Shown here: positions 32,506 through 57,976 of the stretch, piece by piece | How the letters are laid out: the number at the start of each line of letters is the position of its first letter | Position numbering within the stretch: the first letter of the stretch is position 1 | Assembly (NCBI RefSeq): GCF_011008565.1 | Contig: NZ_JAAIWK010000012.1 | Coordinates: 30,353-94,352 of the forward strand | Source of the DNA: Heyndrickxia ginsengihumi | GTDB lineage: Bacteria; Bacillota; Bacilli; Bacillales; Bacillaceae_C | Length of the DNA: 64,000 nucleotides | Direction of reading: 5' to 3' | Notes under the pieces: model-generated | Seen by the model: only the letters and a program-made list of their open reading frames with translations | Databases searched by the model: none | What the model was told of the DNA's origin: nothing | Translations under genes and position numbers: made by a program

Positions 32506-32798
32506 AATAAAAATTGGATAGCAAATAAAGCTATCCAAAACATCTAGGGAGTTTAGGGGTATGGATCTAGATGTAATACTATTGTTACCAATAATATGCG
32601 AATTTAAACTTACTCGTACTAATAGCAAGATCTCTAGAGCGGAAGGAAACGAACATCCTGAAGCGGGAATCACCCTCTCCCATTTTAAAAAAATTAAAAG
32701 TGAAAAGTTAAAGAAAATGAACAGAAAAATTGAAAGATTAACGGTAAACCTGCTATGATAAAGAGTAGTATTGTAAGTATGAAGAAAGGATGAGTTAA
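32506..32798. other. Intergenic region fruA-brxB
   Basis: Together with the fru terminator this is a gap of about 370 bp. A 65-codon frame (32561-32758) has a TAGGGGT sequence before its ATG but no recognisable family, and its composition is not convincing. AAAGGATGAG precedes brxB. Confidence 0.35.
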
Positions 32799-38340: not shown

Positions 38341-38468
38341 AACAAAAAACCACCTAAAAAATAGGTGGTTGCACTACTGGCTCCTTGTTATCTAAGTGCC
38401 CAAATACAGATAACAATTCATGGCTTATTTTTTTAAGCAATACTATTAACTTAAAAATATGCTATTCT
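38341..38468 (-). promoter_or_regulatory. Structured leader with attenuator-type terminator ahead of ydaK
   Basis: The predicted transcript folds a stem TTGTTATCT/AGATAACAA (complement of 38408-38416 and 38385-38393) with a 14-nt loop. A loop segment GCACT can pair with AGTGC (complement of 38371-38375), giving a possible pseudoknot. Immediately behind, AACCACCTA/TAGGTGGTT with a 5-nt loop and a T-tract forms an intrinsic terminator (38341-38370), about 40 nt before ydaK. No known riboswitch class was recognised; the GEMM core is absent. Confidence 0.6.
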
Positions 38469-47469: not shown

Positions 47470-47712
47470 AAAACCCTTCAATCCATTAAAGGACGAAGGG
47501 TTTATATTCGCGGTACCACCTTTATTACTAGAATACTTTATATTCTAGTATCTCTCAGTTGATAACGGTCATTTTCCGGTTTGGTTTGCCAAACAGCTCG
47601 CAAGGTAGGTTCAATGGAAGAGTGGATGATGAAGTTTTTCAGCCGTTGAACTTCATTCTCTTTTCATCATCTTCTATTTACTGATCTTGGTCATTGCAGA
47701 TACTTCATATTC
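47470..47712 (-). promoter_or_regulatory. T-box leader with proline (CCU) specifier ahead of proI
   Basis: On the minus strand the conserved T-box sequence AAAGGTGGTACCGCG is at the complement of 47509-47523. The specifier region reads GAA-CCT-ACC, with the proline codon CCT at the complement of 47607-47609. The terminator stem AAACCCTTC/GAAGGGTTT is at 47471-47502. Uncharged tRNA-Pro should stabilise the antiterminator and allow proI transcription. Confidence 0.93.
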
Positions 47713-56920: not shown

Positions 56921-57250
56921 TTATTTGTTCTTTAATTTCCATTTGTTAAATTCTAAAAATTGCCGAAATTCTTCTTTGGATACTCCTGAGTTCATCGCTT
57001 CAACAACAAGTTTTTTCCATTCTCCATCTAATTCAGCTGTTTCTAAATCGTTTATTTCTTCATGCAATAATGTATCGACAGAAATTTCTAGTACGTAAGC
57101 AATTTTTTCTAAAAAATGAATGGAGGGATTCGTTTGAATATTACGTTCAATTGAACTAAGGTAAGATTTGGCAACTCCAGCTTTTTCAGCTAATTCTGAA
57201 AGGGAAAACCCATTTTGTAAACGGTACTTTTTAATCTGTTGTCCAATCAC
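56921..57250 (-). CDS. sinR: Biofilm master repressor SinR
   Basis: Xre-type repressor of biofilm matrix genes. Helix-turn-helix at about residues 5-60, with SLSELAEKAGVAKSYLSSIER nearly identical to B. subtilis SinR (recalled), and a C-terminal SinI-interacting helical hairpin (DGEWKKLVVEAMNSGVSKEEF, split over about 78-98). The GTG at 57250 begins IGQQIKKYR as in SinR and has AGGTGA 5 nt upstream; a GTG at 57259 is possible. 109 residues. It has its own -10 region and lies behind sinI. Confidence 0.93.
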   Translation of the reverse strand: MIGQQIKKYRLQNGFSLSELAEKAGVAKSYLSSIERNIQTNPSIHFLEKIAYVLEISVDTLLHEEINDLETAELDGEWKKLVVEAMNSGVSKEEFRQFLEFNKWKLKNK

Positions 57251-57262
57251 TCCTGTCACCTA

Positions 57263-57292
57263 CCTTCGTTTTATTATATCATATAACGAAGG
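57263..57292 (-). promoter_or_regulatory. Extended -10 promoter of sinR inside an inverted repeat
   Basis: On the minus strand TGATATAAT provides an extended -10 (TATAAT at the complement of 57273-57278) about 25 bp before sinR. It is enclosed by a perfect inverted repeat CCTTCGTT/AACGAAGG (57263-57270, 57285-57292), which may be an operator. A separate constitutive sinR promoter also exists in B. subtilis. Confidence 0.55.
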
Positions 57293-57365
57293 TATCGTTC
57301 CATATTTCGAACAAAAGGAGAGTAAAGAAGGAGAACAATCAGAAGTTCACGAGATAGGAAATTTT

Positions 57366-57494
57366 TTATTGTTCCCCATTTCTTAGGAAAACTTGAATAT
57401 CATTTACTGTTAATCCAATGTTCAAGGCACTTAAAATTAATTCTACCCACTCCGAATCCAATGATTGCTCAGTTTCTAATGGATTTTTTTCCAT
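57366..57494 (-). CDS. sinI: SinI-type anti-repressor, 42 residues
   Basis: ATG at 57494 with a perfect AGGAGG (complement of 57500-57505) 5 nt upstream opens a 42-codon frame. The segment LDSEWVELILSALNIGLTV (about residues 12-30) followed by DIQVFL is the SinI dimerisation helix-hairpin that titrates SinR, and resembles the SinR C-terminus downstream. It lacks the C-terminal extension of B. subtilis SinI. It is 115 bp upstream of sinR on the same strand and directly behind a c-di-GMP-I riboswitch. Confidence 0.85.
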   Translation of the reverse strand: MEKNPLETEQSLDSEWVELILSALNIGLTVNDIQVFLRNGEQ

Positions 57495-57499
57495 GGTCT

Positions 57500-57612
57500 C
57501 CTCCTAAAATACATAGTATTTCAGGTAGCCCAGCCGTCGTAGTACGTATCGTACCTTAGACCCGTGACTTTGCGCCCCTTTTTTTCAAGAAGGTTTGCCC
57601 TTTGCTGAAAAA
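57500..57612 (-). promoter_or_regulatory. Cyclic-di-GMP-I (GEMM-I) riboswitch controlling sinI
   Basis: Read on the minus strand the class-defining segments occur in order: GGGCAAACC (complement of 57592-57600), a GAAA tetraloop, GCGCAAAG (57568-57575), CACGGGTCTAAGG (57554-57566) and GGCTGGGCTACC (57524-57535). TTTCA/TGAAA (57606-57610 with 57519-57523) can close the outer stem. The aptamer end can instead pair as CCTGAAATAC/GTATTTTAGG (57516-57525 with 57503-57512), hiding half of the sinI AGGAGG. This suggests a translational on-switch. There is no terminator. Confidence 0.85.
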
Positions 57613-57976
57613 TAGAACTATACGCAAGCGTTATCTTTAAGTCTAATGTTTCAAATTCAGTATAAAAAAAATAAATCAATGTTGCTCGTAAAATATGTCG
57701 GCAGTAAATAACATTTCGTTGACAAAAAAAATCAAATTGATTGATGAAATGACGAGTATTTCACGCGTGAGGGAAAATAAAAATGATTAAACATATTCAA
57801 GCGTATTACAGCATCATTTTTTGTTGGAACGAGAAGAAATATAGCGGAAAAATTACGGGTTTTTTTGGCAAAATAAGTAAATAATATACATATGTGCTAG
57901 TGTTCACGATGAACTATAAAGAACGATGCCAGGTTATATGTTTTGTCTTCGAATAGTCTCTCGTTTAAATAAGTAT
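57613..57976. other. Region upstream of the sinI riboswitch
   Basis: About 360 bp. The minus strand should hold the sinI promoter; TATAGT (complement of 57618-57623) is a -10 candidate with only a weak -35. A perfect palindrome TCACGCGTGA (57761-57770) stands in AT-rich sequence. A 33-codon plus-strand frame (57783-57884) is preceded by GAGGG but has no recognisable family and is not called. Confidence 0.35.

What the first reader, a model, noticed from the sequence alone, without database searches (positions are those of the whole stretch)
57366..57612. c-di-GMP-I riboswitch placed directly on a sinI anti-repressor gene
Seen: the ordered GEMM-I core segments on the minus strand (57524-57600) and a 42-codon sinI frame whose AGGAGG lies just behind. 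Known: GEMM-I aptamers bind c-di-GMP; SinI antagonises SinR. Inferred: the aptamer 3' strand (CTACCTGAAA) is shared with a 10-bp hairpin CCTGAAATAC/GTATTTTAGG that occupies AGG of the Shine-Dalgarno. Ligand binding would hold that strand in the aptamer and free the ribosome-binding site, so c-di-GMP would switch SinI on. In B. subtilis sinI is controlled by Spo0A, not by a riboswitch as far as I recall. This would wire the second messenger directly into the biofilm switch.
Basis: partly seen in the sequence, partly recalled or inferred. Interest (0 to 1): 0.93.

Follow-up and report, generated by a model that had tools for sequence, protein, structure and literature searches.

The report
c-di-GMP switch on biofilm gene sinI
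An RNA leader that matches the c-di-GMP-I riboswitch family lies directly on the ribosome-binding site of sinI, the anti-repressor gene of the Bacillus biofilm switch; it is predicted to turn SinI production on when the messenger c-di-GMP is high, and the same arrangement recurs in many related genera, with what looks like a broken remnant in the B. subtilis group.

Summary
The minus strand at 57521-57609 matches c-di-GMP-I (RF01051) with 70.7 bits (cut-off 35); sinI (Pfam SinI) and sinR follow. The strand 57516-57525 can either close the aptamer (P1; ligand cytosine) or pair with the sinI Shine-Dalgarno, so c-di-GMP is predicted to switch SinI translation ON. The pairing of riboswitch and sinI is already in print as one table row for Bacillus methanolicus, without mechanism. 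New here: (1) it is widespread: 58 of 80 named SinR loci, and 69 of 70 high-scoring loci read from 397 genomes of the order. (2) It has two mirrored designs: usually the 3' strand of P1 is the anti-Shine-Dalgarno, in 30 of 133 leaders the 5' strand is; both predict ON. (3) The B. subtilis group keeps the sequestering hairpin on sinI, with the ligand cytosine mutated and the aptamer decayed: an apparent fossil. Spo0A boxes are enriched upstream, suggesting a Spo0A AND c-di-GMP gate. Binding, switching and sign are untested. In silico the hairpin is much more stable than P1, so binding would have to act during transcription.

The parts
57718..57726 (-). Spo0A-box-like TTTGTCAAC (one mismatch to TTTGTCRAA, consensus recalled)
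   Evidence: sequence; such boxes are enriched upstream of related leaders
57617..57646 (-). predicted sigma-A promoter: TTAGAC, 18 nt, TATAGT (the scan gives TAGACT-17-TATAGT)
   Evidence: 9 of 12 consensus matches, number of sites not above shuffles (2 found, 2.3 expected), so weak; would place the transcript start near 57610
57605..57610 (-). P1 5' strand TTTCAG
   Evidence: P1 pairs 3 and 4 covary over 119 leaders
57521..57609 (-). c-di-GMP-I (GEMM-I) aptamer
   Evidence: RF01051, 70.7 bits, E 7.5e-12
57516..57525 (-). switching strand CCTGAAATAC: P1 3' strand (57519-57524) and 5' arm of the SD hairpin; C57525 corresponds to the ligand-contact cytosine C92 of Vc2 (mapping from the recalled Vc2 sequence)
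   Evidence: C92 named as important for ligand interaction in PMC11218506 (passage)
57503..57512 (-). 3' arm GTATTTTAGG of the sequestering hairpin; overlaps the SD by AGG
   Evidence: conserved
57500..57505 (-). sinI Shine-Dalgarno AGGAGG
57366..57494 (-). sinI, 42 aa, SinI-domain anti-repressor
   Evidence: PF08671 37.3 bits, cut-off 31.4; NCBIfam equivalog NF046031 29.5 bits, cut-off 80 not reached
56921..57259 (-). sinR-type repressor (HTH_3 + SinI domain; start probably GTG 57250)
   Evidence: PF01381 56.8 and PF08671 53.3 bits; 61-75% identity to the proteins encoded at 80 named loci

Best explanation
The minus strand at 57500-57610 carries a c-di-GMP-I aptamer directly on the Shine-Dalgarno of sinI, and it likely works as a translational ON switch. 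Shown by sequence: one strand (57516-57525) is complementary both to the 5' end of the aptamer (P1) and to the sinI SD region. Inferred: with little c-di-GMP the strand folds into the hairpin that covers the SD, and SinI is not made, so SinR stays free to repress. With much c-di-GMP the aptamer captures the strand while it is being transcribed (ligand cytosine C57525 plus P1), the SD stays open, SinI is made and removes SinR. Transcription of sinI is probably still under Spo0A, so the gene would need both signals. The element is a widespread, apparently ancestral wiring of the Bacillaceae sinI gene. It occurs in two mirrored designs, and was apparently lost in several lineages, where the B. 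subtilis group retains only the hairpin.
For: Aptamer: 70.7 bits, twice the cut-off. Linkage in the family: 24 of 34 genomes have an RF01051 place less than 300 nt upstream of a SinI-domain hit, 25 of 102 places. Order: of 397 genomes, the 30 best R1 loci all lead into a SinI-domain ORF, and 39 of 40 fetched from the next 42 rows. Named loci: 58 of 80 SinR loci, i.e. 58 of the 76 that have a sinI, carry the element within 60 nt of the SinI domain (partly the same genomes as above). Platform: CC..GG hairpin on the SD in 79 of 82 distinct leaders, median shuffle z -4.3. P1: pair 3 canonical in 111 of 119 (shuffled 100.2, sd 1.5), pair 4 in 79 of 119 (66.3, sd 2.3), with C-G/T-A exchanges. Second design: in 30 of 133 leaders the 5' strand of P1 is the stronger anti-SD (median duplex -11.4 against -3.8 kcal for the 3' strand; CCTCC in 16 of 30, against 0 of 103 in the first design); the same sign follows. 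Own genome: 12 GGDEF places. Present in a mapped 5'-UTR in a relative: PMC4342826 (passages).
Against: No binding or expression data. The P1-forced fold is 12.4 kcal/mol weaker than the hairpin fold (-24.2 against -36.6; no ligand or tertiary energy), so the switch would have to be kinetic. P1 is only 3-4 bp in 73 of 103 first-design leaders, and in the first-design set alone pair 4 has no support (40 of 82, shuffled 40.9). The hairpin covers only half of AGGAGG. Stem arms are nearly invariant, so covariation of the hairpin itself is modest. In the second design cognate pairing beats swapped partners in only 20 of 30. The shuffles do not correct for relatedness. 18 of 76 sinI genes in the named set lack an intact element, the window's own genus-mate H. 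acidiproducens among them, and two of the 58 counted as linked are decayed. A c-di-GMP-I riboswitch of B. thuringiensis (Bc1) did not respond to c-di-GMP in vivo (PMC11218506 abstract), so an aptamer does not prove function.
Confidence: 0.82

Rival explanations
1. The aptamer binds c-di-GMP but switches sinI OFF, or acts on transcription or mRNA decay rather than on translation.
For: c-di-GMP riboswitches of either sign are known (PMC7793685 passages name an off and an on one in B. thuringiensis). The hairpin leaves AGG of the SD free.
Against: No terminator-like site between aptamer and sinI. In both designs the strand that pairs with the SD is a P1 strand, which a ligand-bound aptamer would occupy; an OFF switch would need the reverse.
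Confidence: 0.1
2. The leader is a decaying or non-responsive riboswitch; the hairpin alone sets a fixed low level of SinI translation.
For: The hairpin outlives the aptamer in the B. subtilis group and in L163 (H. sporothermodurans J6TS2) and L179 (B. zhangzhouensis). It is far more stable than P1 in silico.
Against: In the window the aptamer scores 70.7 bits and the ligand positions are intact. Many aptamer core positions are invariant across 23 family leaders.
Confidence: 0.08
3. The hairpin is conserved as the site of a protein or small RNA, and its complementarity to P1 is incidental.
For: The arms are nearly invariant in sequence, and in the B. subtilis group even the loop is.
Against: The second design keeps the logic with different sequences and the other strand. 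Loop length and sequence vary in the first design.
Confidence: 0.05

Closest known systems
(c-di-GMP)-sinI of Bacillus methanolicus MGA3 (BMMGA3_08510), PMC4342826, 2015 (passages read)
   Same: A putative c-di-GMP riboswitch in the mapped 5'-UTR of sinI.
   Different: In the passages seen, one table row and one clause: no structure, sign, mechanism, conservation or relation to B. subtilis.
Vc2 and other c-di-GMP-I riboswitches acting on translation (Vc2 recalled; class described in PMC11218506, passages)
   Same: Aptamer class; translational sequester / anti-sequester logic.
   Different: Target is the SinI anti-repressor; a target-specific platform conserved across genera, in two mirrored forms.
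Bc1 (mcpE) and the cbpA riboswitch of the B. cereus group (PMC11218506 and PMC7793685, passages)
   Same: c-di-GMP riboswitches in Bacillaceae, that of cbpA ON for an adhesin.
   Different: Bc1 has two terminators and up to 220 bp between aptamer and start codon; neither is on sinI.
B. subtilis sinI control by Spo0A (recalled)
   Same: Same gene pair; Spo0A-type boxes also upstream here.
   Different: The B. subtilis control genome has no RF01051 match; its group keeps only the hairpin.

Membership tests
c-di-GMP-I riboswitch (RF01051) | covariance-model score above the gathering score | tested here: met
   70.7 against 35 bits, positions 1-87
c-di-GMP-I riboswitch (RF01051) | ligand-contact nucleotides G20, A47, C92 (Vc2 numbering) | tested here: met
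   G57599, A57571, C57525 by alignment; the mapping uses the recalled Vc2 sequence; the three positions are named in PMC11218506
c-di-GMP-I riboswitch (RF01051) | GAAA tetraloop in P2 | tested here: met
   loop GAAA in the cmscan alignment
c-di-GMP-I riboswitch (RF01051) | specific binding of c-di-GMP | not testable with these tools
   needs in-line probing or similar
translational ON riboswitch | aptamer strand that alternatively pairs with the SD | tested here: met
translational ON riboswitch | ligand raises translation | not testable with these tools
   no experiment possible
SinI anti-repressor (Pfam PF08671) | profile score above cut-off, beside a SinR with the same domain | tested here: met
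   37.3 against 31.4 bits; sinR downstream
SinI anti-repressor (NCBIfam equivalog NF046031) | score above cut-off 80 | tested here: not met
   29.5 bits; so I call it a SinI-domain protein of the sinI-sinR pair, not a member of that equivalog

The most novel reading that the evidence does not exclude
c-di-GMP control of SinI translation is the ancestral wiring of the Bacillaceae biofilm switch, evolved with two mirrored anti-Shine-Dalgarno designs. The B. subtilis group is the derived case: its sinI mRNA still carries the riboswitch's sequestering hairpin, with the ligand-binding cytosine and the aptamer lost, a molecular fossil in the model organism's lineage.
Probability: 0.6. Interest if true: 0.88.

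Novelty: new variant of a known kind. Interest (0 to 1): 0.8.

Why it matters
SinI/SinR is the textbook Bacillus biofilm switch, and in B. subtilis c-di-GMP is not thought to act on it (recalled). If right, in most of the SinR loci sampled by name here the second messenger would act directly on the anti-repressor, on top of Spo0A, as a two-input gate. It would also give an origin for the conserved hairpin on sinI in the B. subtilis group, and makes the question of how c-di-GMP reaches the biofilm switch directly testable with one reporter.

Tried and rejected
Transcriptional attenuation was rejected: no terminator-like site in 57240-57800. Chance occurrence was rejected by the comparative data. 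A general c-di-GMP-I platform was set aside: four other aptamers of the same genome (L001-L004) show no CCTGAAATAC-type hairpin on an SD, by eye and fold. RNAalifold on A1 did not propose the SD hairpin or P1, probably because MAFFT shifted the arms of one clade; the pair count on A1 shows weak hairpin covariation (helix 6, 86.8% of cells paired, no pair with a change on both sides; helix 7, one such pair). P1 beyond pair 4 has no support, and pair 4 has none in the first-design set alone. In the window's own genus the element is not universal: G002 has sinI without it, and G003 and G004 have no SinI match. L093 is the one platform locus in which I found no SinI gene. R1 filters-off scores of the B. 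subtilis-group leaders are weak alone (21.0 and 14.7 bits, E 0.0013 and 0.07); the case rests on their position and on the DNA match to a sister genus (E 3e-9). For H. acidiproducens (L110) the remnant is by eye only (best filters-off match at the leader 7.9 bits, E 5.5). Borderline by duplex energy: L228, L219 and L167:937. Rows dropped before counts: L029 (insertion), L163 and L179 (decayed); 14 of 133 leaders without a YRG motif in the anchored P1 count; 30 of 148 upstream regions (duplicates, short or N). The literature is an open-access library only (10 searches); subscription papers could hold more.

Full report
Observation. The minus strand of the window at 57521-57609 scores 70.7 bits against c-di-GMP-I (RF01051, gathering score 35, E 7.5e-12), full length. 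The SD AGGAGG is 57500-57505 and the ATG starts at 57494; the arms CCTGAAATAC and GTATTTTAGG are at 57516-57525 and 57503-57512. I add P1: TTTCAG (57605-57610) pairs with CTGAAA (57519-57524). A weak sigma-A-like promoter would start the RNA near 57610, right at P1; there is no terminator-like site. The MFE of the leader contains the SD hairpin. Forcing P1 costs 12.4 kcal/mol in a calculation without ligand.

Where it comes from. The genome has 3.74 Mb in 63 contigs. The genome has five RF01051 places and 12 GGDEF places.

Conservation in the family. In 34 genomes of the family I intersected RF01051 places (102, one below the gathering score) with SinI-domain places (138): 24 of 34 genomes have an aptamer less than 300 nt upstream of a SinI domain, and 25 of the 102 places are so placed. 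The aptamer search scored only part of its first-look candidates, so these are lower bounds. MAFFT of 23 leaders shows the aptamer core and the platform.

Conservation in the order. A covariance model R1 from these 23 leaders was run on 397 genomes. All 30 best loci lead into a SinI-domain ORF, and 39 of 40 fetched from the next 42 rows. By the tool's labels these 69 genomes fall in 19 families and 28 genera (my count from the table). R1 was trained on sinI leaders, so its best hits are expected to be such; the point is how many genomes have them. In 28 of the 70 loci a SinR-length gene lies convergent to sinI rather than in tandem (my count), so the element travels with sinI, not with sinR. 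As a check that does not start from the aptamer, 80 named loci were taken by SinR similarity (the best 80 of 472; they overlap in part with the genomes above). 76 have a sinI, and 58 of these have R1 directly on it. 17 have sinI without it, one has an aptamer split by an insertion, and 4 have no sinI nearby. Of the 20 weak or negative loci tested with Rfam only the split one reaches the gathering score, so two of the 58 (L163, L179) are decayed. Sixteen other weakly scoring or unusual named loci, and four loci, were tested: all 20 pass RF01051 or its sister family RF03167.

First design. In 79 of 82 distinct leaders the two cytosines after the aptamer pair with the G-run of the SD, with median shuffle z -4.3; the loop varies in length and sequence while the arms stay complementary. 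Changes such as T-A to C-G at the third pair occur but are few. The first of these cytosines corresponds to C92 of Vc2, a ligand position (PMC11218506, passage; mapping from the recalled Vc2 sequence). Ligand binding and sequestration would therefore compete for the same base even where P1 is short.

Second design. Twelve named loci (14 leaders; Alkalihalobacillus, Pseudalkalibacillus, Evansella, Salibacterium, Salipaludibacillus, Alteribacter and unnamed Bacillus) lack the conserved 3' hairpin and most of them carry CCTCC- or CTTCT-like stretches in the 5' strand of P1. A second model from 12 of these leaders run on the order gave 30 loci, 30 of 30 on a SinI domain, several of them already known. 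Over 133 leaders (SinI downstream in all but L093) the duplex energies split into 103 with a stronger 3' strand (median -11.6 against -4.5 kcal) and 30 with a stronger 5' strand (-11.4 against -3.8). CCTCC is in 16 of 30 of the second group and in 0 of 103 of the first. Cognate 5'-strand/SD pairs are stronger than swapped ones (mean -11.03 against -10.28, sd 0.32, p 0.013; stronger in 20 of 30), a modest difference. In both designs P1 removes the anti-SD, so both predict ON. P1 itself is supported at pairs 3 and 4 (111 and 79 of 119, shuffled 100.2 and 66.3); the C-G to T-A exchange at pair 3 is seen in genus g5 and again in Evansella and Salipaludibacillus. In the first-design set alone pair 3 is supported (60 of 82, shuffled 52.3) and pair 4 is not (40, shuffled 40.9). 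None of these shuffles corrects for relatedness.

Loss and fossil. The sinI leaders of B. tequilensis (L178) and Bacillus sp. SKDU12 (L180) give no R1 match with default filters and no Rfam match, yet carry CTGAAATAC ATAAACAA GTATTTTAGGAGG on the sinI SD. With filters off the best R1 match in each locus is that leader. Used as a DNA query on 397 genomes the L180 leader matches 11: five of one genus (82-100% identity), two of a sister genus in the same family, and four in other families; the sister-genus match covers positions 103-150 at 88%, E 3e-9, and lies in an intact riboswitch. In the alignment the seven subtilis-group rows (L190 and L180 may be the same genome) are invariant over the hairpin and its loop and keep the 3' part of the aptamer; the ligand cytosine is G, the stem is 9 bp, and the 5' half of the aptamer is not recognisable. 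I did not have B. subtilis 168 itself. The named control genome of B. subtilis has SinI matches but no RF01051 match. Similar remnants with an intact hairpin are in L163 and L179.

Second input. TGTCGAA (Spo0A box core, recalled) occurs exactly in 29 of 118 upstream regions, against 2.6 expected (maximum 6 in 20 Markov resamplings); the window has a one-mismatch box at 57718-57726. Spo0A at the promoter and c-di-GMP at the SD would make a two-input gate; this is inference.

Known and new. PMC4342826 (passages read) names a c-di-GMP riboswitch in a mapped 5'-UTR of sinI in B. methanolicus, in one clause and one table row. In PMC7793685 (passages) sinI rises in B. thuringiensis when a cyclase is overexpressed, from unpublished array data; whether a riboswitch is involved there is unknown. 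The listings (20 of 28 shown) show, by title and start of abstract, no study of the mechanism, the spread or the B. subtilis remnant; I read passages of three papers only (PMC4342826, PMC7793685, PMC11218506). Membership in c-di-GMP-I is established by score; function as a switch is predicted only.

Noticed in passing
window 38354-38437 (-): A class II c-di-GMP riboswitch (RF01786, 68.3 bits) precedes three genes (38301-35268), the middle one a glycosyltransferase whose best NCBIfam match is PgaC/IcaA (below its cut-off). Two unrelated c-di-GMP riboswitch classes thus sit on biofilm-type genes 19 kb apart.
   Followed up: partly
L139, L140, L160, L170, L172, L181: Six of 18 sinI genes without an intact switch have a palindrome GTTCTTTAAAAAGAAC (or GTTCTC..) upstream, 0 of 58 with the switch; it resembles the recalled SinR operator GTTCTYT, so SinR may control sinI there instead.
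   Followed up: partly
L029 and L030 (L155 and L138 are the same contigs by length): An insertion splits the P3 loop of the sinI aptamer in two genomes; in L029/L155 it holds a Bacillaceae-1 RNA match (RF01690), in L030/L138 the aptamer still scores 61.8 bits across it.
   Followed up: partly
L028, L142, L167, L218: Some loci or genomes have two SinI genes, each with its own c-di-GMP-I aptamer.
   Followed up: partly
L016 (G019 C29): A lone SinI-domain gene behind a 75.5-bit aptamer for which my scan found no ORF starting with ATG, GTG or TTG; ATT is the nearest candidate by eye.
   Followed up: no
L163, L179: Platform hairpin intact on sinI but aptamer decayed below the Rfam cut-off.
   Followed up: partly
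L001-L004: Four other c-di-GMP-I aptamers of the genome: before a 121-aa unknown ORF, shortly after a GGDEF gene, before a response-regulator gene, and one with no same-strand ORF of 80 aa downstream in the locus.
   Followed up: partly
window 47486-47703 (-) and 32509-32576 (-): A T-box leader (105 bits) and an sbrA-like small RNA (74.2 bits).
   Followed up: no
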